This document shows positions 4,219 through 38,680 of a stretch of 64,000 nt of DNA, piece after piece. Where the stretch lies: contig NZ_VLLL01000005.1 of assembly GCF_007994225.1 (NCBI RefSeq), positions 190,359-254,358 of the forward strand, given 5' to 3'. The number at the start of each line of letters is the position of its first letter. The stretch's first letter is position 1. Origin of the DNA: Stackebrandtia albiflava (GTDB taxonomy: Bacteria > Actinomycetota > Actinomycetes > Mycobacteriales > Micromonosporaceae). A model generated the notes under the pieces. That model searched no databases. It was given only the letters and a program-made list of their open reading frames with translations, and had not been told where the DNA came from. A program made the translations under genes and the position numbers.

Positions 4219-4324
4219 CGCCTTGGGTGGTCTGAGGCCCGCCTTGGGTGGTCTGAAGCCCGCGAGAATTCGGACATCCGGGCTTATTCGAGGCATGTCG
4301 ATCGGCCCCCGCCCACCCAAGGCG
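4219..4324 (+). repeat. palindromic intergenic element, copy A
   Basis: The element starts with two 21-bp direct repeats (4219-4239, 4240-4260; one mismatch), each beginning CGCCTTGGGTGG. It ends with the inverted copy CCACCCAAGGCG (4313-4324). Inside, GACAT and ATGTC form a second stem around the conserved loop GGGCTTATTCGAGGC. The same design occurs at 5653-5747, 31176-31274 and, reversed, 38574-38680. It lies between the TPR-like gene and ahpD. Confidence 0.8.
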
Positions 4325-4410
4325 ATGGTGTGGAGGCATGGGAACGGCCCGCGCCCCGGGGAAGGGGACACGGGCCGGGAAGTGCCACGGCGCGGTCGCG
4401 CACCGTCGGG

Positions 4411-4944
4411 TCAGCCCGCCAGGGCGGCCTCCGCGTCGAGGGTCACCGCGGCGGCGTGGACGACGGCGGCGATCCGCAGTGCGTCGTGCACGTTGTCACG
4501 GGACATGCCCGCACCCGTCAGCGTCTTCTCGTGCGACTCCAGGCAGGTGCCGCAACCGGTGACGGCCGAGACCGCGACCGACCACAGTTCGAAGTCGATC
4601 TTGTCGACGCCGGGGCGGCCGATGATCTGCATCCGCAGCCGGGCCGGAAGCGACTGGTAGGCGTCGTCGCCGATCAGGTGCTTGGCCCGGTAGTAGACGT
4701 TGTTCATCGCCATGATGGAGGCCGCGCCCTTGGCCGCCGTCATCGCCTCGTCCGACAGGTGCTTGGCGGCCTCGTCGACGATCTCGCGCAGCACGACCGG
4801 GTTGCGGGCGGCGAACGCGGTGGCGACGAGGGTGCCCCACAGCTGCTGTTCGGTGAGTGACGACGTCGTGGTCACCGAGCCGAGGTTCAGCTTGGTGTCC
4901 TTGGCGTACTCCGGCAGTGCCGACTTGATGTCCTCGATAGCCAT
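4411..4944 (-). CDS. ahpD: alkyl hydroperoxidase AhpD
   Basis: A 177-residue CMD-family thiol peroxidase that reduces AhpC through lipoylated dihydrolipoamide acyltransferase in mycobacteria. The redox motif is C131-G-T-C134 with His138 (CGTCLESHEKTL). Length and sequence are typical for the family. The start MAIEDIKSALPEY was chosen over a 21-residue upstream extension because it overlaps the AhpC stop by one base (TGATG), the usual coupled arrangement. It is the second gene of an ahpC-ahpD operon. No oxyR gene adjoins the pair. Confidence 0.95.
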   Translation of the reverse strand: MAIEDIKSALPEYAKDTKLNLGSVTTTSSLTEQQLWGTLVATAFAARNPVVLREIVDEAAKHLSDEAMTAAKGAASIMAMNNVYYRAKHLIGDDAYQSLPARLRMQIIGRPGVDKIDFELWSVAVSAVTGCGTCLESHEKTLTGAGMSRDNVHDALRIAAVVHAAAVTLDAEAALAG

Positions 4945-5495
4945 CAGGCCGCCATCAGCTTCTTGGCGTCCAGGGTCTCGCCGTCCTTGTTCCAGTTGCA
5001 CGGGCACAGCTCGTCGGTCTGGAGCGCGTCGAGCACCCGCAGCACCTCGGAGACGTTGCGGCCGACGGAACCGGCGGTCACCATGACGAACTGGATGACG
5101 TTGTCGGGGTCGACGATGAAGGTGGCGCGCTGGGCGACGCCGTCCTCACCGAGGACGCCGGCGGCGGCGGTCAGCTCACGCTTGACGTCGGACAACATCG
5201 GGAAGGGCAGTTCCTTCAGGTCCGGGTGGTCCTTGCGCCACGCGTAGTGCACGAACTCGTTGTCGACCGACCAGCCCAGGACCTGGGCGTCACGGTCGGC
5301 GAACTCGCCGTTGAGGCGGCCGAACTCGGCGATCTCGGTCGGGCACACGAAGGTGAAGTCCTTCGGCCACGCGAACAGGACGCGCCACTTGCCCTGGTGG
5401 GACTTGTGGTGGATGGTCTCGAAGGCGTTGTCCGGGTCGAGCGACACGCAGGCGGTGAGCTCGTACTCGGGGAAGTGGTCGCCAACGTTCAGCAC
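4944..5495 (-). CDS. ahpC: peroxiredoxin AhpC
   Basis: A 183-residue 2-Cys peroxiredoxin that reduces H2O2, organic peroxides and peroxynitrite in the cytosol. The peroxidatic Cys51 is in FTFVCPTE and the resolving region is CPCNW (Cys164/166), as in mycobacterial AhpC, which has a three-cysteine arrangement. The start is GTG at 5495, preceded by GAGGAG. It leads directly into ahpD. The upstream region to 5650 holds TTGAAC and similar boxes on the minus strand, but no clear OxyR site could be assigned. Confidence 0.96.
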   Translation of the reverse strand: MLNVGDHFPEYELTACVSLDPDNAFETIHHKSHQGKWRVLFAWPKDFTFVCPTEIAEFGRLNGEFADRDAQVLGWSVDNEFVHYAWRKDHPDLKELPFPMLSDVKRELTAAAGVLGEDGVAQRATFIVDPDNVIQFVMVTAGSVGRNVSEVLRVLDALQTDELCPCNWNKDGETLDAKKLMAA

Positions 5496-5652
5496 GGATC
5501 GTCTCCTCGCGGATGTCTTGGGAACCGCCGGGCCAACAGCACCGGCTTATCTGGAATCGTTCAAGAATGTACCCGTCGAGTGCGTCATCGGCGCATCCGG
5601 TACGCGTGGGTGTGGGAAGGGTCTCGCCCCCTCCGTCCCGCCCCGCCTTCTG

Positions 5653-5747
5653 CGGCTTGGTTGGTCATAATGCGCGCTTGGTTGGCCGTACGACGGAAAG
5701 AAAGCGCTCTCTCGGGCGTGTCGCTCGTCGTATGACCAACCAAGCCG
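5653..5747 (+). repeat. palindromic intergenic element, copy C (shortened core)
   Basis: CGGCTTGGTTGG (5653-5664) recurs as GCGCTTGGTTGG exactly 21 bp later, and the inverted copy CCAACCAAGCCG closes the element at 5736-5747. The inner part CTCTCGGGCGTGTCGCTCGTCGTA aligns with copy D at 38574-38680, but about 14 bp of the inner stem and loop are missing. It lies upstream of ahpC in a region with no genes. Confidence 0.75.
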
Positions 5748-5755
5748 TACATGAG

Positions 5756-5795
5756 CGGCCGCCTGCGGTCTCGGGAGGAGGACCGCAGGCGGCCG
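5756..5795. terminator. perfect 15-bp hairpin
   Basis: CGGCCGCCTGCGGTC pairs with GACCGCAGGCGGCCG around a 10-nt loop. It sits 113 bp past the end of the minus-strand gene at 5908 and next to repeat copy C. A second, shorter hairpin lies nearer that gene. The rest of 5496-5907 holds only the repeat and these hairpins; no gene is seen. Confidence 0.5.
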
Positions 5796-5864
5796 ACCGC
5801 GGGATCACCGGCCGCGCCCACCCGCGCCGGAGTTCCCGCCGCCCGGCCTGCCACCGGGCGTGGA

Positions 5865-5891
5865 CCGACCGTGAGCGGAAACCACGGTCGG
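5865..5891 (-). terminator. hairpin terminator of the 5908-6213 gene
   Basis: CCGACCGTG pairs with CACGGTCGG around a 9-nt loop, 17 bp beyond the minus-strand stop at 5908. Confidence 0.55.
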
Positions 5892-5907
5892 CCGGGTCTC
5901 GCGCGGG

Positions 5908-6213
5908 TCAGCCGTCACACAGCCTGATCGGCCGGGGACGCGATTCGTATACCTCCAGCGCCCGGGATTCAAACCGCCGCTTCCACTCCGGGAAGTTCGA
6001 CACCCACGGCGCACCCCACGACGTGCGCGGAAAGCCGTCCACGCCCGCGATGGTGCACACCATTGCCCGCTGCTCACCGTCGAGCGCGTACACCCTGACC
6101 GTGTGCGGTGCCGCCGACGAGGTCACCACGTACTCCCGCGTCGGGTCGCTGAACCGGCCGTACTCGATCTCGCCCGGAACGCCGAGCCCGGTGTCGCCTG
6201 GAATGCCGGTCAT
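5908..6213 (-). CDS. small protein of unknown function beside an XRE/DUF397 locus
   Basis: A 101-residue soluble protein with no recognised family. It has an N-terminal Gly-rich stretch, then beta-like EREYVVTSS-type segments (REYVVTSSAAPHTVRVYALDGEQ) and a Trp-rich middle (FPRTSWGAPWVSNFPEWKRRF). The start MTGIPGDTG was chosen because GGAGG lies 5 nt upstream and its ATG overlaps the stop of the small CxxC gene (ATGA), so the two are coupled. They diverge from the XRE-DUF5753 regulator. The setting resembles actinobacterial whiJ-like clusters, in which small proteins of unknown role accompany such regulators. Confidence 0.7.
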   Translation of the reverse strand: MTGIPGDTGLGVPGEIEYGRFSDPTREYVVTSSAAPHTVRVYALDGEQRAMVCTIAGVDGFPRTSWGAPWVSNFPEWKRRFESRALEVYESRPRPIRLCDG

Positions 6214-6362
6214 GCCCGCCTCCCCACCACCACGCCGCACGGCCACTCGGTCCGGCACACCTGGCACGTCCGTCCATACACCACATCCGGAAAATGCGGC
6301 CGATACCCGTCCGGCTCCCCGCCGGGCTGGCGTGGAACGCCATTCGGTCCTACGCTGTTCAT
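6210..6362 (-). CDS. 50-residue CxxC...WPC protein
   Basis: This short open frame encodes 50 residues beginning MNSVGPNGVPRQ and containing YRPHFPDVVYGRTCQVCRTE followed by WPC. The C-x-x-C-x5-C pattern with WPC is a recurrent feature of tiny actinobacterial proteins and could bind zinc, but that is inference. Its TGA overlaps the ATG of the next gene by the ATGA arrangement, which supports real translation. A weak GGAG lies 10 nt before the ATG. It diverges from the XRE regulator at 6580. Confidence 0.65.
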   Translation of the reverse strand: MNSVGPNGVPRQPGGEPDGYRPHFPDVVYGRTCQVCRTEWPCGVVVGRRA

Positions 6363-6511
6363 GCCATCCATCTCGACTCCAATCGTTGCTGGATGGTCCT
6401 CATCCGGGGTGGTCTCTCGTTGGTCGCGGTGACCATCCCGGATTTCGCGGCACCGCCGCTCGTGATTCCACGCTAAACGCCGCAGCCTCGAAGAAGGAAG
6501 CGATCCGCGTC

Positions 6512-6554
6512 CGTACAGTTCGGTCAGTACAAAAAGTACGGCCGATTCTGCACG
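6512..6554. promoter_or_regulatory. imperfect dyad in the divergent promoter region (possible XRE operator)
   Basis: CGTACAG...CAGTAC, an AAAAA centre and GTACGG...CTGCACG form an imperfect inverted repeat of 43 bp. It lies between the CxxC gene and the XRE-DUF5753 gene, 25 bp before the latter. It is a plausible autoregulatory site; there is no direct evidence. Confidence 0.35.
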
Positions 6555-6579
6555 TTGACAGCCGTGTTATCACTTAGCC

Positions 6580-7392
6580 ATGACGTCACAACCCGGCTTC
6601 ACACAGTGGTTGCTGGCCAGTGTGCTGGAACGGCTCCGACTCGACGCCGGGATGACGTGCGGGGACGCGGCCATGGCGATCGGAGTGGCTCGGCAGACCG
6701 TCTCGCGGTGGGAGGCGGGGTTGCACAGGATCCCCGCCAGCGCCGTGAAGAACCTCTGCGAGGTGTACGGAGCCACCACGGAGGAGACCAACGAGCTCTA
6801 CAGCATGACGCTGCGCCCCAAGGATTCGATCGGCAACGTTTGGGAACGTGCGCGGCAGAACCGAACCTGGCGAGCGATCATCGTCGCCGAATCGTTGGCC
6901 AGGCACATCTACAACGTCGAACCGCTGTACGTTCCGGGATTGCTGCAGACTCCGGAGTATTGGTGGCACCTCAACATCACGTCACCTGACCCGAAAGCCG
7001 CGTCGGAGAACGGGTTCGCGTTCCGAAGAGAACGGCAACGAACGGTCTTCCAACGAAGCGAGCCGCCTTTGATGACCTTCCTGGTCGGTGAGCCCGCAAT
7101 GCGGTACATGTTGTCCCTGGAAGGCGTGAGCGAGTCCCAGACGGCCAGGTTGCGGGCAGCGAACAGGTACGGGAACGTGGACATACGGGTGTTCAGTCAT
7201 CCGGTGGAGAGCGCGTTCGCGGTGTTCGAGTCCGGCAGTCGCGTGCGTGGCACCTTCGTGTGCGTCGATCAGATCGACGGAACGAGATACACGGACAACA
7301 GGGAGGCGGTCGCGAGCCACATGCGAATGTACCGGCATCTGGTTGCAGATGCGGTTCCGCTTGACCAGTATCTAATACAGCGGCAATCGTGA
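6580..7392 (+). CDS. XRE-family regulator with DUF5753 (whiJ-like)
   Basis: A 270-residue transcription regulator. An N-terminal helix-turn-helix spans about residues 12-66 (MTCGDAAMAIGVARQTVSRW). The DUF5753 domain fills residues 90-265, with the hallmark YVPGLLQTPEYWWH and the later VRVFSHPVE-type segment. The family includes WhiJ-like proteins that act with small acidic and DUF397/BldB-like partners in actinomycete development. The ATG has no clear Shine-Dalgarno; TATCAC lies 6 nt upstream, so it may be leaderless. The DUF397 gene follows after 16 bp. Confidence 0.93.
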   Translation: MTSQPGFTQWLLASVLERLRLDAGMTCGDAAMAIGVARQTVSRWEAGLHRIPASAVKNLCEVYGATTEETNELYSMTLRPKDSIGNVWERARQNRTWRAIIVAESLARHIYNVEPLYVPGLLQTPEYWWHLNITSPDPKAASENGFAFRRERQRTVFQRSEPPLMTFLVGEPAMRYMLSLEGVSESQTARLRAANRYGNVDIRVFSHPVESAFAVFESGSRVRGTFVCVDQIDGTRYTDNREAVASHMRMYRHLVADAVPLDQYLIQRQS

Positions 7393-7408
7393 GCGGAGGG
7401 AGTTTGCA

Positions 7409-7585
7409 ATGAAGGCAAGTGCGTGGCGTAGGGCGAGCCGGAGTTCTGCCGGCGGTTACAACTGTGTAGAGGCTCGTCTGACCGGCCACGGCCCTGAACT
7501 CCGGGACAGCAAACTGGGTGACCGCTCGCCCGTTCTGCACATGACCCGCACGGACTTCGCCGCGTTCCTGCGGCTCGTCACCTGA
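7409..7585 (+). CDS. DUF397 domain-containing protein
   Basis: A 58-residue protein that is nearly all DUF397: WRRASRSSAGGYNCVEARL, then LRDSKLGDRSPVLHMTRTDF and the end FLRLVT. These proteins are the usual partners of XRE-DUF5753 regulators and some pairs behave like toxin-antitoxin or regulator-antagonist modules. GGAGGG lies 9 nt before the ATG. It follows the regulator by 16 bp on the same strand, almost certainly in one transcript. Confidence 0.92.
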   Translation: MKASAWRRASRSSAGGYNCVEARLTGHGPELRDSKLGDRSPVLHMTRTDFAAFLRLVT

Positions 7586-7602
7586 CCACCCGGCGGCCCG
7601 TC

Positions 7603-7959
7603 ATGCTTCCATCGATCGATCCGCCGCCGGGGTATGAACCGCGCCTGGTCGAGATTCGGCAGATGCCCGGTTACGGCTGGCACATCCTCGGGCAGCGGTT
7701 GGGAGTTCCCGTCCTGATCACCGGCTTCGCGGGCAGTATGGCGGGGGACGACATACTCGGACGGAACATCTTCCTGGCAGCGTGGTGCTACCTGGCGGTG
7801 GTGATCCTCAGCGGACACTGGATCAGCTATCGGTTGTACCTGCGGCGGAGGGAGTCGTTTCCGGTCGTGTTGCGGGGTGGATCCCGGGTCCTCATCGGTG
7901 ATGTCTTTCGTCTCCGGATCTGGCGGCCGCGGGCGTGGCGTGCGATGGCGGGGGAGTGA
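7603..7959 (+). CDS. small membrane protein, first of a related pair
   Basis: A 118-residue protein with two membrane segments, near residues 33-55 (VPVLITGFAGSMAG...) and 57-75 (FLAAWCYLAVVILSGHWI). It ends with a basic tail containing DVFRLRIWRPRAW. The next gene ends with the closely similar DVFRLTRWRPGDW, so the two appear to be diverged duplicates. The ATG at 7603 is 17 bp after the DUF397 stop, and its own TGA overlaps the next ATG (TGATG). Function unknown. Confidence 0.72.
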   Translation: MLPSIDPPPGYEPRLVEIRQMPGYGWHILGQRLGVPVLITGFAGSMAGDDILGRNIFLAAWCYLAVVILSGHWISYRLYLRRRESFPVVLRGGSRVLIGDVFRLRIWRPRAWRAMAGE

Positions 7960-8306
7960 TGGCCCCGGCCGGTGTGCTCGTGGCGGTGCGTTGTGCGCGG
8001 GGCTATGCCCGGTTCGTCGTCGCCAACCGGGCGTATGTGGCGGGGGTGGGGGTCTACTGCCTCTCCGGGGTGTGGCTGTCCCGCGGACCCGGCGCGATCG
8101 TGTTCTTCTGTCTGTTGTTCGCGGGGGCGTTGGCGTTGGCCGGGTTCGGTTACCGGTTCGCCTACCTGGTGGCCCGGGCGACGGGTACCACCTTCCCGAG
8201 CGCGCTGGGGTGGATGTCGCGACTCGTGCGCCGAGACGTCTTCCGCTTGACCCGGTGGCGGCCCGGGGACTGGTGTGAGTCGACCGGCTCCGACCGGTCC
8301 GCCTGA
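7959..8306 (+). CDS. small membrane protein, second of a related pair
   Basis: A 115-residue protein with two hydrophobic segments (AYVAGVGVYCLSGVWL and AIVFFCLLFAGALALAGFGY) and a basic tail with DVFRLTRWRPGDW. The start MAPAGVLVAV was chosen because its ATG overlaps the previous stop by one base; a longer frame would overlap the preceding gene. Conserved tail motifs and coupled translation suggest a hetero-oligomeric membrane pair. Function unknown. Confidence 0.72.
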   Translation: MAPAGVLVAVRCARGYARFVVANRAYVAGVGVYCLSGVWLSRGPGAIVFFCLLFAGALALAGFGYRFAYLVARATGTTFPSALGWMSRLVRRDVFRLTRWRPGDWCESTGSDRSA

Positions 8307-8450
8307 AGTCGGGGACATCGCCGTCGAGGCCACCGGAATGACGTCGAAGTCGGGTGACTTCGGCCGAGGAGGATCCGACGGGGACCGGATGGATCGGATC
8401 GCCCATCGCGCCGCCGCACCCGTGGCAGCGGGCGCGACGAGACCGGCGCC

Positions 8451-9113
8451 CTACCGGCCGGCGTGGTCCTGGACTGTCTCGATGACCTCGTCCGGGCCGC
8501 TGATCGCCTCCAGGGTCAGCCCCGACGTTCCCGGCGAGTCCAGCACGGCCAACAACAGTTCCGCGACGTCGTCGCGGGGGATCTCGCCGTGTCCGGTGGA
8601 GTCGGACAGTGTGATCCTCCCGGTGCCCGGTTCGTCGGTGAGCCGCCCCGGCCGGATGATGGTCCACCGCAACGACTCCCGCTGACGCAGGTCCCGGTCG
8701 GCGGCGCCCTTGGCGCGCAGGTAGGTGGCGAACACCGGGTCCATGTCGGGGCTCGGCTCGTCGTCCGCGCCCATCGCGGAGACCATCACGTACCGGTGGA
8801 CTCCGGCGGCCACCGCCGCGTCGGCCAGCAGGATCGCGGCGTTCTTGTCCACGGTCTCCTTGCGCGCCCCGCCGCTGCCGGGTCCCGCCCCGGCGGCGAA
8901 CACCACGGCGTCGGCGCCCCGCAGGTGCTCCACGACGCCGTCCACCGACGCCGTCTCCAGGTCGCACACGACGGCCTCCGCCCCGGCCGCCTGCAGGTCG
9001 GCGCGTTGCTGCGGGTTGCGGATCAGCCCGACCGCCTCGTCGCCCCGGCCGCTGAGCAGCCGTTCCAGCCGAAGCGCGATCTTGCCATGGCCTCCCGCGA
9101 TCACGACACGCAT
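8451..9113 (-). CDS. NAD(P)-binding atypical SDR (YwnB/NmrA-like)
   Basis: A 220-residue Rossmann protein. The dinucleotide-binding loop is VIAGGHGKIALRL at residues 4-16, a GxxGxxG variant of the atypical SDR class. FAAGAG and VSAMGADDEPS correspond to later cofactor and substrate-site segments. It lacks the YxxxK pair of classical SDRs, although a Tyr-x-x-x-Lys-like YLRAKGAAD is present near residue 145. TAGGCT lies 6 nt before the ATG, so translation is probably leaderless. It is transcribed alone. Substrate unknown; such proteins often act as quinone or flavin reductases or redox sensors. Confidence 0.87.
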   Translation of the reverse strand: MRVVIAGGHGKIALRLERLLSGRGDEAVGLIRNPQQRADLQAAGAEAVVCDLETASVDGVVEHLRGADAVVFAAGAGPGSGGARKETVDKNAAILLADAAVAAGVHRYVMVSAMGADDEPSPDMDPVFATYLRAKGAADRDLRQRESLRWTIIRPGRLTDEPGTGRITLSDSTGHGEIPRDDVAELLLAVLDSPGTSGLTLEAISGPDEVIETVQDHAGR

Positions 9114-9119
9114 GGGACG

Positions 9120-9125
9120 AGCCTA
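9120..9125 (-). promoter_or_regulatory. -10 box of a leaderless promoter (SDR gene)
   Basis: TAGGCT on the minus strand is followed after 6 nt by the ATG at 9113. Confidence 0.5.
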
Positions 9126-9209
9126 TTCGGCCGCCGGAGACGCCGCACCCCTTTCCCCGATACCACCGTCGCCGCAGGGCCGGTCAGACGGAGCCATGGG
9201 CGCCCGGTG

Positions 9210-10154
9210 TCACTCGAAGAGGATGCTCAACGACTCGCGGTGGTGGATGCGGCGGATCGCCTCGGCGAACAGCGGCGCGACCGACACGGTCCGCACCAGC
9301 GGTGACCGTTCCACGGGGCTGTTCTCCACCGAGTCGGTGACGTAGAGGGCCTGGATCGCGGAGGCGTCGAGCCGTTGCATGGCCTTGCCGGTGAAGACGC
9401 CGTGGGTGACGGCCGCCCGGACCGAGCGCGCGCCCTTGTCCATGAGGCAGTCGGCGACCTCGGCGAGGGTGCCCATCGTGATGGTGAAGTCGTCGACGAT
9501 GACGGCGTTGCGGCCTTCGACCTCACCGATGAGGTCCACGACGCGGGCGTTCTCGGTGTGGTCGACGCGTTCCTTGTCGGCGATGGCCAGTGGCGCGCCG
9601 AGTCGCTTGGCGTACTGCTTGGCCTTCTTCGCGAATCCGGCGTCGGGGGACACGATCACCAGGTCGTCCAGTTGCTCGGCGGCGATGGCGTCGGTGAGGA
9701 CGGGGAGGGCGTAGAGGTCGTCGACGGGGACTCCGAAGAAACCCTGGATCTGTGGTGCGTGGAGGTCGAGGGTGACGACGCGGTCGGCTCCGGCGGCCTC
9801 GATCGACTGCGCGCACACGCGGGCGCGGATCGAGACGCGGGGTTCGTCCTTCTTGTCGCCCTTGGCGTAACTGAAGTAGGGGATCAGCACCGTCACCGAC
9901 GCCGCGGACGCCCGTTTGAGGGCGTCGATCCAGAACAGCAGTTCCATGAAGTTGTCGTTGGCGGGGAAGACGGTGGACTGCACCAGGTACACGTGCCGAC
10001 CGCGTACGTTCTGGCCGACCTTGACGAAGAGGTTGCCGTCGGAGAACTGCAACACCTCGCCCCGTCCTACCGGTACGTCGAGGATCTCGCAGATCTCCTG
10101 TGTCAACAGTGGATTCGCCGACCCACCGATGACCACCAATTCGTCGTCGCGCAT
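9210..10154 (-). CDS. ribose-phosphate pyrophosphokinase, divergent paralogue
   Basis: A 314-residue PRPP synthetase-family protein that would transfer pyrophosphate from ATP to ribose 5-phosphate. Usual landmarks are present: the N-terminal IGGSANPLL, IPYFSYAKGDKKDEPR (residues 91-106) and DLHAPQIQGFF (130-140). Two key segments are altered. The catalytic flexible loop is AKGDKKDEPRV where ARQDRKDRPRV is usual, and the PRPP loop at 220-230 is VDDFTITMGTL where VDDMIDTGGTL is usual, losing an Asp and a Gly. It therefore looks like a second, specialised paralogue and not the housekeeping enzyme, which normally follows glmU. AGGA precedes the ATG. Confidence 0.85.
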   Translation of the reverse strand: MRDDELVVIGGSANPLLTQEICEILDVPVGRGEVLQFSDGNLFVKVGQNVRGRHVYLVQSTVFPANDNFMELLFWIDALKRASAASVTVLIPYFSYAKGDKKDEPRVSIRARVCAQSIEAAGADRVVTLDLHAPQIQGFFGVPVDDLYALPVLTDAIAAEQLDDLVIVSPDAGFAKKAKQYAKRLGAPLAIADKERVDHTENARVVDLIGEVEGRNAVIVDDFTITMGTLAEVADCLMDKGARSVRAAVTHGVFTGKAMQRLDASAIQALYVTDSVENSPVERSPLVRTVSVAPLFAEAIRRIHHRESLSILFE

Positions 10155-10291
10155 CTGTTCTTCCTCAGCATCGCTCCGGCGGAAAACGGTCCGATCCTCT
10201 CATGCCGTCGCGCGGGTGACTTTCAGGTAGCTGACACTCGGACGGGTTGGTCACATCGACGTTAACGGGTGTCGTCGCAGCTCACGAGGGG

Positions 10292-10981
10292 TCACGTATC
10301 GGTGTCGTTCTGCGGCGGGACGGAGGCGCGTATCCCGTGGAGCAGTCGGCGGAGTCCCACGTCGAAGAAGTCGGCGAGCGGGTCGGAGTCGTGTGCGCGT
10401 GCGGTGTCGGCGAAGGAGCTGACCAGCGGGAACCGGTTCCTGTCCACCGCCGAATGGCCGAACCGGGGCGCGCGGCGGTGGATCTCCGGTTGGACGGCCC
10501 CCCGGACGTAGCTGCTGACGGCGAGGGCGTTCTTCATGGCGTCGGCGAGTGGCTGCCGTAGCCGTGCGAGCGCGGTGAGCTCCGCCTCCAGCCAGGCGGT
10601 CTCGTTGGGGCCGACGACACCGGGGGAGATGGCGGGATCGGTCAGCCAGGGGTGGGCGTGGAAGACGGTGCGCAGGGCGTGCGCCCAGCGGTGGAGCGCG
10701 GTGTACCAGTCGTCGCCGGTCTCGGTGTCCGGTGGCTCGCCGTAGGCGGTGTCGGCCATGAGCGCGACGAGTTCGTCCTTGCCCGGCACGTGGTGGTAGA
10801 GCGACATGACGCCGGACTCCAGTTCCTCGGCGAGGCGCTTCATGGACAGCGCCGCCAGTCCCTCCCGGTCGGCGATCCGCATCGCGGTGGTGACGATGCG
10901 GTCGAGGCTCAGTTTCGGGGGACGGCCGCGTGGTGCCGGTGCGCGGCGGCCCCACAGCAGGTCTTCCATGTCGTCCGGCAC
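10292..10981 (-). CDS. TetR-family repressor of the first DUF2306 module
   Basis: A 229-residue regulator. The helix-turn-helix is near residues 25-65 (RIVTTAMRIADREGLAALSM, then GVMSLYHHVPGKDEL), followed by a C-terminal ligand-binding domain with the conserved WLEAEL...ALAVSSYVRGAV found in the TetR_C family of tetracycline-type repressors. GTG at 10981 was chosen because GGAGGG lies 7 nt upstream; a longer frame would run through the operator. It diverges from a DUF2306 membrane gene across two palindromes at 11084-11117. A paralogue with the same arrangement lies at 11880-12560. Confidence 0.92.
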   Translation of the reverse strand: MPDDMEDLLWGRRAPAPRGRPPKLSLDRIVTTAMRIADREGLAALSMKRLAEELESGVMSLYHHVPGKDELVALMADTAYGEPPDTETGDDWYTALHRWAHALRTVFHAHPWLTDPAISPGVVGPNETAWLEAELTALARLRQPLADAMKNALAVSSYVRGAVQPEIHRRAPRFGHSAVDRNRFPLVSSFADTARAHDSDPLADFFDVGLRRLLHGIRASVPPQNDTDT

Positions 10982-18157: not shown

Positions 18158-18331
18158 TCAGCGGCGCCGGCCCTTTCGGGACTTGAGCCTGCGGATGAGT
18201 TCGCGTCGGGCGGCCATGGCGTCGTCCGCCGGGGGAGTGGTGTCCCCGGTGCCGCCACGCAGGTCCTGCCGGGAGAGGTGGCGGCGCTGTCCGCCGACGC
18301 CGAGCATTCCGGTTCCGATTCCCTTGGTCAA
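18158..18331 (-). CDS. DUF6243-like small basic protein
   Basis: A 57-residue protein: MTKGIGTGMLGVGGQRRHLS, then RQDLRGG, an acidic linker and the basic end REL IRRLKSRKGRRR. The LGVGG-R-LSR-L-GG pattern resembles the DUF6243 family of Streptomyces and relatives. The start is TTG at 18331 with AAGGAG 6 nt upstream. The gene faces away from a TetR gene, and two of three shared 20-bp repressor sites flank its probable transcription start. Function unknown. Confidence 0.68.
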   Translation of the reverse strand: MTKGIGTGMLGVGGQRRHLSRQDLRGGTGDTTPPADDAMAARRELIRRLKSRKGRRR

Positions 18332-18343
18332 GGGTGTCTCCTT

Positions 18344-18457
18344 CTAACGAGTCCGTCGTTGCCTTCGTCGGTGCCGAGCCGCCTCGCGGGGTGGCTCGGC
18401 GGTCACCTGAGCCGCATGTCGTTCTCCTGTCGTGAGTCGAGACGTCTCGTCTCGCAT
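18344..18457 (-). CDS. possible leaderless upstream ORF, 37 residues
   Basis: An ATG at 18457 lies 7 nt after TATCGT on the minus strand and opens a 37-codon frame rich in Arg and Glu. Its TAG falls just before the AAGGAG of the DUF6243-like gene, so the ribosome would end beside the next start. A second tiny frame (MRLR) with its own GGAG lies within it. Whether either is translated is unknown. Confidence 0.3.
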   Translation of the reverse strand: MRDETSRLTTGERHAAQVTAEPPREAARHRRRQRRTR

Positions 18458-31175: not shown

Positions 31176-31274
31176 CGCCTCGGGTGGTCCAGAGCCGGCC
31201 GCCGGCTCCGTGGTGAAAAACGGATGTTCGGGCCTGTTCGGGGCGCGTCGACGGGTCTGTGCCCACCCGAGGCG
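31176..31274 (+). repeat. palindromic intergenic element, copy B
   Basis: CGCCTCGGGTGG (31176-31187) is closed by the inverted CCACCCGAGGCG (31263-31274). The inner GATGT/GCGTC stem pairs with two G-U wobbles, and the loop TTCGGGCCTGTTCGGGGC matches the core of copies A and D. The second direct repeat of the arm seen in A, C and D is not preserved. Confidence 0.75.
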
Positions 31275-32279: not shown

Positions 32280-32294
32280 CGCAACACCCCAGCT

Positions 32295-32318: not shown

Positions 32319-32454
32319 TCTTGGTTTTCGGGGTGCTGTGGTGGCACGGTGGTGGCACGGTGGTGGCACCGACCGAGGGTAGGACTCGCAGAACCCGACA
32401 CCCGCATCAGTCCGGTGGAGAGGTCAAGCGGTGTAGACCTCGCGGTGGTCGTGG

Positions 32455-33372
32455 TCATCTCCTGGTTCCGTCGCCCGGCCCGAAGATTCCGGCGATCGCG
32501 GCGAACACCGAGGCGAACACCGAGAACGTCCGCTGACCGGTGCTCTGCCCGGCACTCGGGTCGACCCGTTGGGCGGCTTCGGCGAACTCCGGCACTGTCG
32601 ACAACCCGTGCAGGGCAACCCGGTGCAGAACGCGATCGTGCTTCGGCTCGGGAGACACTCTCGCCGTGGCGGCGAGCAGCTCGCGGCCGGCCGGTGTCGT
32701 GGCATGTAGCCGACCCCCCGTGCGGTTGCGCGTCACCGCGGTCACCACCACGTAGAAGAGGAACAGGCCAACGATCACGCCGGTGACCTGAGCCTTTTCT
32801 CCAGCGGAACGCGCACCGACCGACGCTACACCCATGCTCCCCGCGACGCCCATGATCGCCACCGACATCAGGGCCGTATACACGCCGGTGACGCGGCGGC
32901 GGGTAAGGGTGACACGCTCGGCCACCTCATTGACCAGACCGGCGGAGATCAGCCGTCGCTGTGCGTCCGAGAAGTCGGTTCGCCGCCGCGCGGCGTGCAC
33001 GATGTCGGGCAGATGCATACCCCGCCTGTCGCGAAGCCGGTCCAGCACCGCCCGCCGGGCGGACTGCGCCGAGCCCTCCTTCGCGGTGTCGGTGGGCTCG
33101 TCGACCAGACTGACCCAACCGCCCACCCTGACGTGCCCCTCCAGCCACAGCCGTGCCAATGCCACCTCGACCAACCGCCGGTCGCCTTCCGCGAGCATGC
33201 CCAGCTCCTCGTGCGACAGGTCGGGTGAGGCGAGGTCTGGTTCGGTGGCCGGGAAGTCTCTCACCGCCCTTCGGTGAGCTCGGCCGGTCAGGATCATCAT
33301 CACGACGAACCAGGCCTGCGTCGCGGCCGAGAACACGACCGCCACCACTACATGAGGTGCCGTCCAGTCCAT
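32455..33372 (-). CDS. TIGR04222-domain membrane protein
   Basis: A 305-residue protein with an N-terminal membrane segment (VVVAVVFSAATQAWFVVMMIL), a cytosolic helical domain (LSHEELGMLAEGDRRLVEVA, LARLWLEGHVRVGG) and two central membrane segments (VYTALMSVAIMGVAGSMGVASV and VTGVIVGLFLFYVVVTAV). This order and the GG-x-R-L-x-A-T-T-P-x-G segment match the TIGR04222 family, common in actinobacteria and unknown in function. The start MDWTAPHV was set by AAGGTGG 7 nt upstream. Confidence 0.85.
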   Translation of the reverse strand: MDWTAPHVVVAVVFSAATQAWFVVMMILTGRAHRRAVRDFPATEPDLASPDLSHEELGMLAEGDRRLVEVALARLWLEGHVRVGGWVSLVDEPTDTAKEGSAQSARRAVLDRLRDRRGMHLPDIVHAARRRTDFSDAQRRLISAGLVNEVAERVTLTRRRVTGVYTALMSVAIMGVAGSMGVASVGARSAGEKAQVTGVIVGLFLFYVVVTAVTRNRTGGRLHATTPAGRELLAATARVSPEPKHDRVLHRVALHGLSTVPEFAEAAQRVDPSAGQSTGQRTFSVFASVFAAIAGIFGPGDGTRR

Positions 33373-33699
33373 TATGGTTCCACCTTCGATCCGAGAGGCC
33401 GACGATCGCGCGGGACCCCTGGAAGCCAAGGGCGACACGGCGATCGAACAGTTTCATGCCGGATGTCGAGCATGCGATGAGCCGACCGGGACCGGTCCCG
33501 CCCGGCCAGGCCGGGCGGTGGGTCCCCGTGGTGTCGGGGCGGCGCACGGGGAAGTGCGTGTCCTGGGCCGGCCGAGGCCAAGACTGGGCTTTACGTACTG
33601 CTGGGCGACGGCCCTGAAGGTTCGGCCACCCTGTGACGGCGGTCGTGGTTTCTGTGCCACCGATCGCGGATGTGAGTCACCACGGTCGGCGAGAATCGC
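33373..33699. other. 327-bp region without a gene
   Basis: It holds a perfect hairpin, CCGCCCGGCC/GGCCGGGCGG with a one-base loop near 33505-33530, and the end of a decayed gene at its right side. No credible reading frame, tRNA or repeat copy is seen. Confidence 0.4.
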
Positions 33700-34167
33700 T
33701 CAGGCCGGCCCGAGGGTCGTGATGTTGTCCGCCAACCATTCGGCGTACGAACGGGGCCGACGTCCCAGAATCCGGGCGAGCGCGTCGACACCATCGCGCA
33801 TCGAACGCAGATCCTCCGCGTTCGGCTCGCCGTCGGTCTCCGGGAGCCACGCCTCGATCTCCTCGTCGCTGATTCCGGCACTTCGATACCGCTGCGCGAT
33901 CTGTTCGGTCGTCAACGCCTCGACGGGGATGGTCCGTCCCAGGGCCGCCCCGATCAACTCGACCTGACCGCGGAGGCTGATCGGTTCCCCATTGACCGTC
34001 AGGACCCGATTGACATGGTCGTCGGTGAGCAGCGCTTCGCGGGCGACCGTGGCGATATCGGCTTCGTCGGTCAGTGAGTACACGGAGTCCGGTGCGATTT
34101 CCCGGATCACCTCTCCGGCGCGAATGGCGGCCACCAGATCCGAGGCGGCACGGGCCCTGGCGAACAC
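33700..34167 (-). pseudogene. NmrA-like SDR, 5'-truncated remnant
   Basis: About 155 codons match the C-terminal half of NmrA/atypical SDR proteins: ARAASDLVAAIRAGEVIREI, DEADIATVAREALLTDDHVN, RVLTVNGEPISLRGQVELIG and LGRRPRSYAEWLADNITT. The N-terminal Rossmann half with GxxGxxG, about 130 residues, is missing; the frame instead runs back into the 3' end of the methyltransferase gene in another register. A GTG at 34167 could start a short product, but it could not bind NAD(P). It is therefore called a remnant. Confidence 0.7.
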
Positions 34168-34201
34168 CGTGGACCGACTCACCGCGTCGTGATGGGTGGT
34201 G

Positions 34202-34819
34202 TCAGTGTGGCTTCGTGGCTTCGATACGTTCCACGGTGCCCGCCTTGAGTCGCCGCGATTCGATACCGGCGAATCCCGCAGCGACCACCACCGGGAGTTG
34301 GCGGCGGGTGTAGTGCTCGCCCGCCGTGCGGACGGTGAATCGCTCGACCAGCATCTGTCCCCACCGTATCGGCGGCCACGTGCTCGCGACGTGATCCAGC
34401 AGCAGCAGCCGGCCGCCCGGACGCAGCACCCGGTACATCTCCGCGACGGCTGCCGTGTTGTCGGGAATTCCGCACAGCGACAGCGTGCAGACCACCGTGT
34501 CGAAGCTCGCGTCCTCGAACGGCAGGGCCTGCGCGTCCGCGCGCCGCAGGACGGGCCGAATCCCGAGCGAGGCGGCACGTATCTCGGCCTGTCGCAGCAT
34601 GGCGGGACTGAAGTCCACTCCGGTGACCCGGACGCCGGCCGGGTAGTGCGGCAGGTTCAGTCCGGTGCCGATCGCGACGTCCAGGACTTCGCCCACCGCC
34701 CGGGCCCCGACCCATTCCCGGCCTCCGGTGAACCATCGTCGCTCGAAGAACCGCATCGCGGCGTCGTAACGGGGGGCGAAACGATCCCATACCTCTCGAT
34801 GACCGTCACTCTCGCTCAT
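34202..34819 (-). CDS. class I SAM-dependent methyltransferase
   Basis: A 205-residue methyltransferase (Methyltransf_11 type). Motif I is VLDVAIGTGLNLPHY near residues 45-59, VTGVDFSPAML is motif post-I, and LPFEDASFDTVVCTLSLC is motif II. WPPIRWGQMLVERF and the C-terminal GFAGIESRRLKAG resemble phosphatidylethanolamine/arsenite-type enzymes, substrate unknown. GGAG lies 5 nt before the ATG. It follows the P450 gene by 33 bp in the same operon, so it may methylate the P450 product. Confidence 0.92.
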   Translation of the reverse strand: MSESDGHREVWDRFAPRYDAAMRFFERRWFTGGREWVGARAVGEVLDVAIGTGLNLPHYPAGVRVTGVDFSPAMLRQAEIRAASLGIRPVLRRADAQALPFEDASFDTVVCTLSLCGIPDNTAAVAEMYRVLRPGGRLLLLDHVASTWPPIRWGQMLVERFTVRTAGEHYTRRQLPVVVAAGFAGIESRRLKAGTVERIEATKPH

Positions 34820-34852
34820 GGTGTCTCCTTACTCGTGTGGGGATCGGGGGCG

Positions 34853-36046
34853 TCACCAGGTGACGGGGATTCCGGTCAGGGAGCGGGTCAGTCTGTCGGT
34901 GTGGACGGTCAGTGTCTCGGCGGGCCGGGTGAGTCGCATCGTCGGGAATCGGGTGACCAGTGCCCGGATCGTCGATCGCATCTCGATGCGGGCCAGTGGC
35001 GCGCCGATGCAGTAGTGGCCGCCGTGTGAGAAACCCAGGTGGCGGGTCGGGGTGGCGCGGTCGATGTCGAACCGTTCCGGCGCGGGAAAGGCGGCGGGGT
35101 CGTGGTTGGCGGCACTGATGTCCAGCAGGACCAGGTCACCGGCGGGGATGGGCGTTCCGGCGATGTCGATGTCGACGCGCGGGTAACGCAGCAGCCCGCC
35201 GGTACCGGAGCCGGGGAAGCGCAGGCACTCCTCGACCGCACCGACGACCTTCGCGGGGTCCTCGGCGACTTCCCGGCGTTGTACCTCGTTCGACAGTAGG
35301 AGCACCGTGGCGTAGCCGATCTGGGCGACGGTGGTCTCGTGGCCGGCGAAGAGCAGCATGGCGGCCAGCCCGGCGACGGTGTCGTCGTCGAGGCCGTCGA
35401 TCGCGCACAGGCCGGACACGACGTCGTCGGCGGGCGCGGTCCGCTTCGCCTCGACGAGCCGCCGCATGTATCCGAACAGGTCGGCGAGTCCTCGTTCCGA
35501 TGTGGCGGTGTCGGTGGTGGAGGCGGCCGCGTTGCTGTAGGACCGGAACTCCGCCCGGTCGGCGTACGGCACGCCCAGCAGCTCGCAGATCACCAGGATC
35601 GGCAACGGCAGCGCGACCGCCTCGTGGAGGTCGGCGGGGTTCGGCCCGGCGGACAGCGCGTCCATGAGGTCCGCCACCAGCGCGTCGACCCTCGGTTCCA
35701 GGGCACGCATGCGTTTCGCGGTGAAGAACGGTGCCAGGAGCCGCCGCATCCGTGCCCGGTCGGCGTGTTCGGTGTCGAAGTTCCCGGCCGGTCGTCCGCC
35801 GAACAACGCCGAGTCGCTGATCGTGGCGGCATTGCCGGGGTCGGGGTGTGACATGCCGAGCCGGTCGTCCGAGAGCAACGCCTTGACACGGTCGTAACCG
35901 GTGACCAGCCACGCCGTGTCGCCGGTGGCCGTCCTGACCCGGTGGACCGCGCCGGTGTTGTGAAGCCGCCGCAGTACCGGCGGCAGCAGCAGGGGGTGGG
36001 GTTGTGCGAACGGCAGGGTCGGTACGGCGGTGTCCGTCTGGCTCAT
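34853..36046 (-). CDS. cytochrome P450
   Basis: A 397-residue bacterial class I P450. The I-helix motif is LLFAGHETTVAQ, the K-helix ExxR is in VEECLRFPG, and the haem ligand loop is LGFSHGGHYCIGAPLARIE near residue 345. These are typical of CYP105/107-like actinomycete enzymes that hydroxylate antibiotics, terpenes or xenobiotics using ferredoxin in trans. No ferredoxin gene adjoins it. The start ATG has GGAG 5 nt upstream; a much longer frame would run through the operator region. The divergent TetR gene probably represses it. Confidence 0.95.
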   Translation of the reverse strand: MSQTDTAVPTLPFAQPHPLLLPPVLRRLHNTGAVHRVRTATGDTAWLVTGYDRVKALLSDDRLGMSHPDPGNAATISDSALFGGRPAGNFDTEHADRARMRRLLAPFFTAKRMRALEPRVDALVADLMDALSAGPNPADLHEAVALPLPILVICELLGVPYADRAEFRSYSNAAASTTDTATSERGLADLFGYMRRLVEAKRTAPADDVVSGLCAIDGLDDDTVAGLAAMLLFAGHETTVAQIGYATVLLLSNEVQRREVAEDPAKVVGAVEECLRFPGSGTGGLLRYPRVDIDIAGTPIPAGDLVLLDISAANHDPAAFPAPERFDIDRATPTRHLGFSHGGHYCIGAPLARIEMRSTIRALVTRFPTMRLTRPAETLTVHTDRLTRSLTGIPVTW

Positions 36047-36057
36047 GACCACTCCAA

Positions 36058-36106
36058 GTTTACTCTTGTGTGTATAACTATGAGTAAACATAGCTTTTGT
36101 ATACTC
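36058..36106. promoter_or_regulatory. AT-rich operator between P450 and TetR genes
   Basis: GTTTACTC (36058-36065) and GAGTAAAC (36082-36089) are perfect inverted repeats. GTATACTC (36099-36106) forms a second, weaker pair with the latter. The segment is strikingly AT-rich for this genome and separates the two divergent starts; it is the probable site of the adjacent TetR protein. Confidence 0.6.
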
Positions 36107-36139
36107 ACCTGTCAACAAGTGGTGTGGACAGGAGGAACG

Positions 36140-36715
36140 GTGCCCGAACCGACACCGGCACCGCGGCGACTGCCGCGCGCCGCACGCCGTGACCAGATCC
36201 TGGCCGCCGCCACCCGGGCGTTCGCCCGCACCGGATACACCGACACCGCCGTCGACGACATCACGGCGGAAGCCGGGATCAGCAAGGTGATCCTCTACCG
36301 GCACTTCGAATCCAAGGCCGACCTGTACCGCTCCGTCCTCGACCGCACCTGCACCCGGCTGGCCGAATCGGTCGGCAGCCGCGACCACGACGCCGGCTCG
36401 ATACCGGCACTGGTCCGTGCCGCAGCCGCCGACCCCGACGGCTTCCGGCTGCTGTTCCGATACGCCGCCCGCGAACCCGAGTTCGCCCCGTACGCGCAGG
36501 ACCTCGCCGGACAGTCCACTCAGATCGCACTACGTCAACTGGTCGACGAGATCCCCGATCCCGGATGGGCGGACTGGGCCGCCCGGATGGCACCCGTCAT
36601 CGCCATCGAGGGCACCCTGGCCTGGCTCGACGCCGGAGAACCCGAGCCCGAGACCGCCGCCCGACGCATAGGACACACCGTCGCCGCCCTCATCGACGCC
36701 GCCAGACGGGCGTGA
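36140..36715 (+). CDS. TetR-family regulator of the P450 operon
   Basis: A 191-residue repressor. The helix-turn-helix is at residues 15-62 (RRDQILAAATRAFARTGYTD, then AGISKVILYRHFESKADLY). The C-terminal domain is short and contains WAARMAPVIAIEGTLAWLDAG. GTG at 36140 has GGAGG 4 nt upstream; a longer frame would cover the operator. Divergent from the P450-methyltransferase operon. Confidence 0.92.
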   Translation: MPEPTPAPRRLPRAARRDQILAAATRAFARTGYTDTAVDDITAEAGISKVILYRHFESKADLYRSVLDRTCTRLAESVGSRDHDAGSIPALVRAAAADPDGFRLLFRYAAREPEFAPYAQDLAGQSTQIALRQLVDEIPDPGWADWAARMAPVIAIEGTLAWLDAGEPEPETAARRIGHTVAALIDAARRA

Positions 36716-36757
36716 GAGGTCCGCCGTCGGCGTGACCCCGTGCACGGTGCGCCCGGG

Positions 36758-37135
36758 TCAGGCGAAGACGAGGGGGACGTCGTGGGCCACACAGAATCGG
36801 AGGACGGTGATCAGACGGTCGAGGTCTTCGAGGTGCGACCGGAGGACCGGGTCGTCGCCGACGGGTAGATCGCGGATCGCCTCCAGGCGCGGCAGCATGG
36901 CCGCGCACCGGTCGGGTGTGAGGTCCGGGCCGTCGTCGTCGGGATGGTCGAGCAACGGTCTCAGCGGCGTGGCGACCTCGGACCACGGACGGTCTCCGCC
37001 GAACCCCGCCATCCCGGTCAGTTCCAGTCCCTCGACCCGCGCCAGCCATTCCCGGAACATGTGGAAACCGTGGTAGGACCACGACACGTCCGGGTGGGTC
37101 ACGTCGTAGCCGCCCGGGAAGAGCATCAGACCCAT
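36758..37135 (-). CDS. conserved protein of unknown function
   Basis: A 125-residue protein opening MGLMLFPGGYDVTHPDVSWS and YHGFHMFREWLARVEG, followed by helical, acidic segments (LDHPDDDGPDLTPDRCAAML, LRSHLEDLDRLITVLRF). I know of no function for this type. GAGGAGG lies 7 nt before the ATG. It follows the alpha-galactosidase gene by about 50 bp on the same strand. Confidence 0.72.
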   Translation of the reverse strand: MGLMLFPGGYDVTHPDVSWSYHGFHMFREWLARVEGLELTGMAGFGGDRPWSEVATPLRPLLDHPDDDGPDLTPDRCAAMLPRLEAIRDLPVGDDPVLRSHLEDLDRLITVLRFCVAHDVPLVFA

Positions 37136-37186
37136 TCCCGCGCCTCCTCGGCGGCGAGCGGCGGGTGTGCGACCACGGCGCCCGCC

Positions 37187-38470
37187 TCAGGCCGACGGGA
37201 ACGGGGTCGGCGCGGGAACGTGGGTCAGCAGCCGCCGCGTCGTCTCCAGCCCCCAGTCGTCGAGGTCGGCGATCCGGTCCGACGCCGAACGCAGGCCACC
37301 GAACCGCTCCACGACGTCCGCCCACTCCTCACGGCGTTCCACCGCCGGACGCGCGACGACGCAGTCGGAGTCGTTGACCCAGAACCGCCCGTGCTGCCAG
37401 GCGCGGCCGAGTGTGTTCATGACGGCGCCCTGCTGCGACGGGGTCGAGGGGTCGCCGTCGCGTGGCGCGTAACGGGTGGCGATGTCGGGTCCGATGCGCA
37501 TCGCGTCGCACAGCCCGACACTGGGCAGGACGGGGGCGCCACACGCCAACAGGTAGGCGTCGTCGCCGACGACCCGCCGGATGTGCGCCATCCCGTCCCG
37601 GTAGGCGCCGATGCCGCCGATGGCACCGGCGTACAGGAAGTCCAGTTTGAAGTAGTCGAAACCCGCCTCGCGCAACATGGTGAACACGTCGGTCAGGTAC
37701 CCCGACGCCGCGTACGGGTCGACGCCGCGTGTCTCGGCTCCCCAGTTGTGCCCGGCGGCACCCGGCAGCAGCCAGTCGGGGTGACGCCGCGCCAGCGCGC
37801 TGTCGGGCAGGGTGAGGAACGGCGCCAGCCAGATCCCGGCGCGGCGGCCGGTCGCGGCGATACGGGAAGCGATGCCGCGCAACGACTCGAACCGGTCCGA
37901 GACGGTCAGCCAGTCACCCACCTTCGACTGCCACCCGTCGTCGATCTGCACCACCTCGACCGGTAGGCCGGCTTCGTCGAGGGCGTCCAGGTTCTCGACG
38001 ACATCGGCCTCCGTGACCCGGGTGAAGTAGTGGTACCAGGAACACCACACCGTAGGCGGGGTCCGGAACGGACCGGCACCCGCCGCGGCGGCGAACCGGT
38101 CGCCGAAGTCGGTGAGCGCGGTGGCGATGTCGGGGGCCGTGGTGACGGCGACGGGTTCCCCGGAGGCGACGACGAGCGTTCCGCCGTCGAGTCGCGCGGT
38201 GACGGAAGGGATCCGGTCGGGGGATTCGGCGGCGAAGCAGGTCGTGGTGCCCGCGCCGTCGTCCACGACGAGCAGCCCCTCGCCCTGGAACCCGTGTGGG
38301 GGCTGGGGTCTGCCGATCCGGTAGTGCTGCCGGGCGGAGAGGTCGCCGCTCGCCCGCCACGAGGTGGCGTCGGCCGGGTACGTCGTGGACGGGCTCCAAC
38401 TCTGCCAGCCGTGCTCGTACACCCGGGCGTGCACGGGATCGACGTCGAGCCGGGCGATCTCATCCACCAT
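37187..38470 (-). CDS. alpha-galactosidase-like glycoside hydrolase (GH36)
   Basis: A 427-residue cytosolic hydrolase. YEHGWQSWSPSTTY and VWCSWYHYFTRV begin the beta-sandwich and TIM barrel; VVQIDDGWQSKVGDW is the conserved barrel strand. The nucleophile is Asp in FDYFKLDFLYAG, the general acid is Asp in CDAMRIGPDIATRY, and FWVNDSDCVVAR follows. This is the GH36/Sip-type layout, shorter than the 700-residue enzymes. No signal peptide, so it acts on imported galactosides. The ATG at 38470 was preferred; an ATG eight or more codons upstream is possible. Confidence 0.88.
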   Translation of the reverse strand: MVDEIARLDVDPVHARVYEHGWQSWSPSTTYPADATSWRASGDLSARQHYRIGRPQPPHGFQGEGLLVVDDGAGTTTCFAAESPDRIPSVTARLDGGTLVVASGEPVAVTTAPDIATALTDFGDRFAAAAGAGPFRTPPTVWCSWYHYFTRVTEADVVENLDALDEAGLPVEVVQIDDGWQSKVGDWLTVSDRFESLRGIASRIAATGRRAGIWLAPFLTLPDSALARRHPDWLLPGAAGHNWGAETRGVDPYAASGYLTDVFTMLREAGFDYFKLDFLYAGAIGGIGAYRDGMAHIRRVVGDDAYLLACGAPVLPSVGLCDAMRIGPDIATRYAPRDGDPSTPSQQGAVMNTLGRAWQHGRFWVNDSDCVVARPAVERREEWADVVERFGGLRSASDRIADLDDWGLETTRRLLTHVPAPTPFPSA

Positions 38471-38573
38471 CGCGACAGTCTCACACGAGACGGCCGACAT
38501 GCACGCCCCCGGCAGAGGCGGGCGGTCGAGGGGGCGGGGGCACCCCTGACGAGGTGTCGATCGTGAACAATGT

Positions 38574-38680
38574 CGGCTTGGTTGGCCGTACGACGATCGA
38601 CATGCCTCGAATAAGCCCTGATGTCTCGATTTTTCGCGAGCTTTCAACCAACCAAGCCGGGCTTTCAACCAACCAAGCCG
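38574..38680 (-). repeat. palindromic intergenic element, copy D
   Basis: Read on the minus strand, two 21-bp direct repeats beginning CGGCTTGGTTGG (38680-38660 and 38659-38639) are followed by the inner GACAT/ATGTC stem with loop GGGCTTATTCGAGGC, and closed by CCAACCAAGCCG (38585-38574). The core is nearly identical to copy A although the arms differ in matched fashion. A third, decayed repeat unit lies at 38681-38701. It sits upstream of the GH36 gene. Confidence 0.82.

What the first reader, a model, noticed from the sequence alone, without database searches (positions are those of the whole stretch)
4219..38680. Family of ~100-bp palindromic intergenic elements with co-varying arms
Four copies (4219-4324, 5653-5747, 31176-31274, 38574-38680 reversed) share one design. 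A 12-bp arm is repeated in tandem with a 21-bp period on one side (two units in A, C and D) and closed by its inverse on the other. The arms differ between copies but stay complementary: CGCCTTGGGTGG/CCACCCAAGGCG in A, CGCCTCGGGTGG/CCACCCGAGGCG in B, CGGCTTGGTTGG/CCAACCAAGCCG in C and D. An inner stem GACAT/ATGTC (A, D) becomes GATGT/GCGTC (B), still pairing with wobbles. The loop GGGCTTATTCGAGGC is nearly fixed. Compensatory change in two stems with a constant loop argues for a folded RNA or a protein-recognised cruciform, not a plain terminator. All copies are intergenic.
Basis: partly seen in the sequence, partly recalled or inferred. Interest (0 to 1): 0.78.

Follow-up and report, generated by a model that had tools for sequence, protein, structure and literature searches.

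The report
Palindromic elements with nuclease partner genes
An actinobacterium carries about a hundred short palindromic DNA elements, mostly just after its genes; they look like selfish repeats served by an unusual DNA-binding nuclease-like protein instead of the known transposase, and similar gene-repeat pairs turn up in distant actinobacteria.

Summary
The four palindromes are real members of a large family: 56 elements in this genome at E<=1e-4, none in 353 other genomes of the taxonomic family. Arm types I and II share one core; a third arm type (III, at least 38 clusters) shares the geometry. Arms repeat every 21 (or 31-32) bp and the innermost inverted pair usually spans 78-80 bp. Elements lie mostly after stop codons, are rare in divergent gaps (5 of 105) and show no clear target duplication. 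Within a family arm changes are rarely compensated, which speaks against a conserved RNA fold. New finding: the only two genes found in 1.19 of 5.55 Mb for an AbiEi-like protein with a DUF559-type nuclease-like end lie between two family I and between two family III elements. Four distant homologues, found by protein similarity alone, are also flanked on both sides by a shared palindromic repeat (one more weakly), and those repeats recur in the same species; nine AbiEi+AbiEii loci are not. Best reading: a REPIN-like selfish repeat system with an AbiEi-nuclease instead of a RAYT. The association is shown; mobilisation is inferred.

The parts
4219..4324 (+). Element A, family I, 106 bp: units 4219-4239 and 4240-4260, core 4271-4304, inverse arm 4313-4324
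   Evidence: convergent gap, 19 bp after a stop codon
5653..5747 (+). Element B, family II, 95 bp: two units, degenerate core, inverse arm 5726-5747
   Evidence: between two minus-strand genes
31176..31274 (+). Element C, family I variant (CGCCTCGGGTGG), 99 bp, one unit, degenerate core
   Evidence: 19 bp after a stop codon, tandem genes
38574..38701 (-). Element D, family II: inverse arm 38574-38585, core 38594-38627, two good units up to 38680 and a third degenerate unit to 38701
   Evidence: between two minus-strand genes

Best explanation
The elements are non-autonomous, REPIN-like selfish repeats: inverted pairs of protein-binding arms, often with extra arms at whole helical turns. They are served in trans by a protein that joins an AbiEi-type DNA-binding part to a DUF559/PD-(D/E)XK-like nuclease part, and whose gene sits between two copies of its own repeat. 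I infer that the AbiEi part binds the arms as double-stranded DNA and that the nuclease part cuts DNA so that repair copies the element into gaps after stop codons, where it does least harm. Shown: family structure, spacing, placement, restriction to one species among those searched, gene-repeat association at six loci in three genera, invariant nuclease-like residues. Inferred: binding, cutting, copying, selfishness.
For: 56 elements at E<=1e-4 and at least 38 family III clusters; none in 353 family genomes (stricter filters). Shared 78-80-bp span and 21/31-32-bp arm spacing in families with different cores. 41 of 105 elements in convergent and 5 of 105 in divergent gaps against 71 and 75 of 371 gaps. 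Two partner genes, each between elements of one family; AbiEi_4 and DUF559 domains; 5 of 6 aligned proteins match PADLOC AbiEi; D224, E235, D237, K241 invariant in 6 of 6. Four homologues found by protein only share a repeat on both sides: 45.5, 55.5, 72.5 and 27; nine AbiEi+AbiEii loci score 7-22.5; 1 of 195 testable genes reaches 40, and that one is the Collinsella solo gene. The repeats recur within the species and in no other record of the collection.
Against: No insertion, excision or empty site was seen; no clear target duplication. The copies are not recent: the best match to copy A elsewhere is 91% identical. Family II has no partner gene in its flanks. L188 is weak: 10 without the gene's 3' end, 27 with it, and one ordinary own-genome gene scores 28.5. 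The two own genes were found because element flanks were fetched, so they are not independent tests. The Pfam nuclease model matches only the two own proteins, one of them below cut-off. Seven fetched Tsukamurella copies lie in 2 convergent, 3 tandem and 2 divergent gaps, so the 3' bias is not clear there.
Confidence: 0.55

Rival explanations
1. The arms are operator arrays of a dispersed regulator or chromosome-organising protein (perhaps the AbiEi-nuclease protein itself), kept by selection to block or insulate transcription after genes rather than spreading selfishly.
For: Arms stay constant while interiors vary; helix-phased spacing; 3' placement; AbiEi-type proteins are known to bind arrays of inverted repeats (PMC7319586, passages).
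Against: Found in one species only of those searched; each repeat family flanks its partner gene on both sides rather than only in a promoter; most convergent gaps in C1 have no element (3 of 75 do).
Confidence: 0.2
2. Miniature inverted-repeat elements (MITEs) of an unidentified transposase; the AbiEi-nuclease genes are passengers between two copies.
For: Sharp ends and terminal inverted repeats, dispersed intergenic copies.
Against: No clear target duplication; arms occur almost only in these short elements, not at the ends of a longer one; the same gene family is flanked by repeats at six loci in three genera.
Confidence: 0.12
3. A structured RNA or a bidirectional transcription terminator acting through the transcript.
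For: Predicted folds are more stable than shuffles, z -3.0 to -6.8 for the four copies; 3' placement.
Against: Hardly any compensatory change within families; inner folds differ; orientation to the upstream gene is mixed, 22 of 39 tandem cases one way (my count); no T-run in the flank consensus; no Rfam match.
Confidence: 0.07

Closest known systems
REP/REPIN repeats with their RAYT (TnpA_REP) transposase
   Same: Species-specific, many-copy extragenic palindromes arranged as inverted doublets with a variable spacer, and a dedicated enzyme gene lying between two copies of its own repeat (PMC2817692 passages, PMC3116915 abstract)
   Different: Enzyme is an AbiEi-nuclease, not a tyrosine (HUH) transposase; no GTAG or CGTC end tag; arms read as phased double-stranded sites; flanking repeats in direct orientation in 5 of 6 loci where RAYT papers report inverted
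AbiE type IV toxin-antitoxin system (AbiEi regulator and its inverted-repeat operators)
   Same: AbiEi-like DNA-binding protein next to arrays of inverted repeats (PMC7319586 passages)
   Different: No AbiEii toxin gene beside the six solo genes; repeats on both sides and dispersed over the genome; extra nuclease-like domain
MITEs
   Same: Short, dispersed, terminal inverted repeats
   Different: No clear target duplication, no parent transposon found, fixed helical spacing with repeated arms
BOX elements of streptococci (recalled)
   Same: Modular intergenic palindromes with a variable number of inner units
   Different: Other sequences; I know of no AbiEi-nuclease partner there

Membership tests
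REP/REPIN-RAYT | RAYT (Y1_Tnp) gene flanked by the repeats | tested here: not met
   One partial Y1_Tnp match in the genome, with no family I/II arms in its 3-kb locus; family III arms not looked for there
REP/REPIN-RAYT | GTAG or CGTC tag at one end | tested here: not met
   Elements start CGGC/CGCC and end GCCG/GGCG; CGTC occurs only inside family II
REP/REPIN-RAYT | inverted doublets with spacer, many extragenic copies | tested here: met
REP/REPIN-RAYT | dedicated enzyme gene between two copies of its repeat | tested here: met
   Families I and III and four distant loci, but with another enzyme; not met for family II
MITE | terminal inverted repeats | tested here: met
MITE | target site duplication | tested here: not met
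   Lengths 2-12 tested; best z 2.3 at 4 bp, others up to 1.6
MITE | parent transposon with the same ends | tested here: inconclusive
   None seen among arm matches of the whole genome, but only 1.19 Mb read in full
Structured RNA | compensatory changes within families | tested here: not met
Intrinsic terminator | T-run after the hairpin | tested here: not met
   Flank consensus is A/G-rich on one side and C-rich on the other
AbiE toxin-antitoxin | AbiEii partner gene | tested here: not met
   None among the neighbours of the six solo genes; present beside the nine controls
PD-(D/E)XK-type nuclease | conserved acidic and lysine residues | tested here: met
   D224, E235, D237, K241 invariant in 6 of 6; the motif reading is recalled; activity not testable here

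The most novel reading that the evidence does not exclude
Solo AbiEi-nuclease proteins are the dedicated enzymes of a second, RAYT-independent class of REPIN-like selfish palindromes in actinobacteria: each paralogue recognises its own phased double-stranded arms and spreads them by nuclease-triggered repair.
Probability: 0.45. Interest if true: 0.88.

Novelty: new variant of a known kind. Interest (0 to 1): 0.75.

Why it matters
Many bacterial palindromic repeats have no known enzyme; a 2013 survey states that CGTC repeats apparently lack a dedicated transposase (PMC3733652, passages). A repeat-flanked AbiEi-nuclease is a concrete candidate from a different enzyme class. It would also give a role to AbiEi-like genes that have no toxin partner, and since each gene lies beside its predicted DNA target, binding and cutting can be tested directly.

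Tried and rejected
RNA fold and terminator readings. RAYT. Target duplication. Copies elsewhere: 0 in the 84,980-species collection for the I/II core and for the III arm pair (records near the window's genome may be left out there), 0 in viral contigs, no plasmid or phage match for one family II element, 0 of 353 family genomes. The single weak hit among 40 relatives shows no CTTGG arms.

Two gaps orthologous to elements A and B in four congeners could not be aligned, so no empty site was read. A family II partner gene was sought in all element flanks held: one weak profile hit (E 0.0013) beside a family II copy is a uridine-kinase-like protein. Viral scans for the partner protein gave none. 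No useful PDB relative. The first gene caller was poor and was replaced; there is no independent annotation of this genome. The output of the palindrome scan was mostly an N run and was cut.

Not examined: 5 of the 11 plasmid records; of the 23, six more were fetched. Others (more Rhodococcus and Streptomyces, Mycolicibacterium, Dietzia, Thermus) were left, so the toxin-antitoxin controls are nine, not all. The arm listing was cut, so 38 family III clusters is a lower bound.
Full report
OBSERVATION. The four palindromes are at the stated places. The genome (5.55 Mb, 13 contigs) gives 117 covariance-model matches at E<=1, including reverse readings of the same palindromes; 56 distinct elements reach E<=1e-4, and the model was built from 41 copies. 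Forty-nine cores match CGGACAT-N9-TTCGAGGCATGTCGATSG with up to 3 changes, 0 in the reversed control; 48 lie in family I or II elements and one (C3:70409) has other arms. The genus is probably Stackebrandtia: recalled from the size of the congener G004 (6,841,557 bases).

ANATOMY. A standard element is 106 bp: two 21-bp units, a core and one inverse arm. Single-unit forms are 84-85 bp; one element has seven units. Of 67 elements tabulated, 34 are family I, 29 family II and 4 other. No element has an exact I arm on one side and an exact II arm on the other. A few keep arms and span but have another interior (C1:117310, C1:341202, C4:43277, C3:56525, C3:57957). A palindrome scan showed a third arm type, GCTTGGTCCCCGCC: 157 arms here with up to one mismatch against 7 for the reversed pattern, and in 100 other genomes at most 21, near their own control counts. 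Fetched regions gave 38 family III clusters.

SPACING. In family III adjacent same-strand arms are 21 bp apart 63 times, 31-32 bp 14 times, 41-42 bp 4 times, and 15 or 19 bp 7 times: 81 of 88 near whole turns. Innermost inverted spans are 78-80 bp in 18 of 36 clusters, 89-90 in 7, 99-101 in 8, and 68, 115 and 122 once each. In families I and II the span is 78-79 bp in 26 of 34 and 24 of 29 elements. Tandem duplication by itself copies a 21-bp spacing, so those counts are not independent; the stepped spans, and the shared span of families with different cores, are better evidence for recognition as double-stranded DNA.

PLACEMENT. By a home-made gene caller families I/II lie in 25 convergent, 39 tandem and 3 divergent gaps of 67, family III in 16, 19 and 2 of 38 with 1 undetermined. 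All positive gaps of C1:1-454000 are 71, 225 and 75. In tandem gaps the median distance to the upstream stop codon is 22 bp (I/II, n=39) and 30 bp (III, n=19), and position in the gap is not uniform (KS p 1.7e-6 and 0.02). Convergent gaps minus the element have a median of 44 bp (I/II, n=25) and 68.5 bp (III, n=16), close to element-free ones (47.5 bp, n=72), so the element adds to an ordinary gap. Ends are sharp; among target-duplication lengths 2-12 the best z is 2.3 at 4 bp.

NO RNA COVARIATION WITHIN FAMILIES. Two-sided changes: 4 cells in family I, 1 in family II, with 85.7% and 92.5% of cells paired. At one outer pair 6 of 24 family I copies are G-G, and the GACAT/ATGTC stem breaks repeatedly. 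Over both families RNAalifold counts two-sided change at 5 of 24 pairs, with 16-17 sequences each: that is one split into two lineages. Predicted inner folds differ between copies.

PARTNER GENE. In genes between close element pairs one family stood out: C3:111490-112362 (start perhaps 111373) between two family I elements, and C3:139058-139972 between two family III elements; the products are about 50% identical. Pfam finds AbiEi_4 and DUF559, one of each below cut-off in one of the two. No further paralogue appears in 922,703 own bases taken as long stretches, in 520 kb of G003 or in 480 kb of other relatives, or in the other element flanks. These two genes were seen because element flanks had been fetched, so alone they prove little. 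Other genes between same-family pairs exist, such as a duplicated surface-protein gene (C3:56623-57807) and a phosphatase-like gene (C6:158407-158850, functions recalled).

INDEPENDENT TEST. Homologues were sought in the plasmid collection by protein alone. Four are solo: one in Collinsella aerofaciens (L186), three in Tsukamurella tyrosinosolvens (L187, L188, L192); these 'plasmid' records carry housekeeping genes and may be chromosomal (inference). The first three showed palindromes in both gaps; L192 was found and fetched after that. Alignment of upstream with downstream gap scores 45.5, 55.5 and 72.5 for L186, L187, L192, and 10 for L188; with the gene's 3' end included L188 scores 27 against a shuffle maximum of 15.5. 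The own genes score 64 and 93. Nine AbiEi genes with an AbiEii partner score 7-22.5. Among ordinary genes 0 of 120 (own, maximum 28.5), 0 of 44 (G003) and 0 of 9 (G004) reach 40; 1 of 22 in Collinsella does, the solo gene itself. The repeats recur in the same species and in no other record of the collection: 14 places in the Collinsella record, and 4, 5 and 12 places in 2, 3 and 6 Tsukamurella records. Tsukamurella arms are mostly 18-22 bp apart, some 38-40. Seven fetched Tsukamurella copies lie in 2 convergent, 3 tandem and 2 divergent gaps, so the 3' bias is not clear there.

MECHANISM. Five of six proteins match PADLOC AbiEi profiles, and E195, D224, E235, D237 and K241 are invariant in all six, as for a working PD-(D/E)XK-like nuclease (recalled motif). 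AbiEi and Rv2827c bind arrays of inverted repeats (PMC7319586, passages). The simplest reading is that the AbiEi part binds the arms and the nuclease part promotes copying; cutting and copying are inferred. Against recent movement, the best match to copy A elsewhere is 91% identical. Family II has no partner gene in its flanks.

COMPARISON. REPIN-RAYT systems share the plan of inverted doublets and an enzyme gene between two copies (PMC2817692 passages; PMC3116915 abstract), but the RAYT and the end tags are missing here, so it works like one and is not a member. Literature searches (listings only, 12 of 34 papers shown) showed no report of AbiEi-nuclease genes flanked by palindromic repeats; most subscription papers are not in that library.

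Noticed in passing
own genome C3:56525-56608 and C3:57957-58040 (L078): Two nearly identical single-unit elements with the same left flank, 1.4 kb apart, beside duplicated surface-protein-like genes: a tandem gene duplication that carried its element along.
   Followed up: partly
own genome C1:874229-874501 (L097): A family II element is split by an insert whose ends carry AGAGCTCCTG/CAGGAGCTCT-like inverted repeats, perhaps another miniature element.
   Followed up: no
own genome C3:70409-70497 (L087): An element with the family I/II core but quite different, still complementary arms (TTCCGGTGTGG/CCACACCGGA), possibly a fourth arm type.
   Followed up: no
own genome C2:557950-558160 (L094): A family I element with seven tandem 21-bp units.
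   Followed up: partly
own genome C1:208272, 335824, 342788, 440893 and others: A separate dispersed repeat starting AGAGGCTGTCT with inverted ends, IS- or MITE-like.
   Followed up: no
G003 C1:4430088, 4445642, 4488644-4489226 (L111, L106, L108): The congener G003 has its own palindromic repeat around GCCTACGGTTTTGGTAGGC, unrelated in sequence; its enzyme was not found in the 520 kb examined.
   Followed up: partly
L193 (Collinsella NZ_OY725717) 18237-18455 and 33075-33292: Further three-copy arrays of the Collinsella palindrome with an 80-81-bp period, away from the partner gene.
   Followed up: partly
own genome C1:66333 region; G004 C1 about 2122362-2122640: Short-period tandem repeats (GCTTGAGGG units in the own genome; TTGGGC and GACTTGGCCTTCG units in G004).
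   Followed up: no
own genome C1:1757367-1757528 (L077): A partial Y1_Tnp match beside a 443-aa TnpB-like open frame, probably an old IS200/IS605-type element (TnpB reading recalled).
   Followed up: partly
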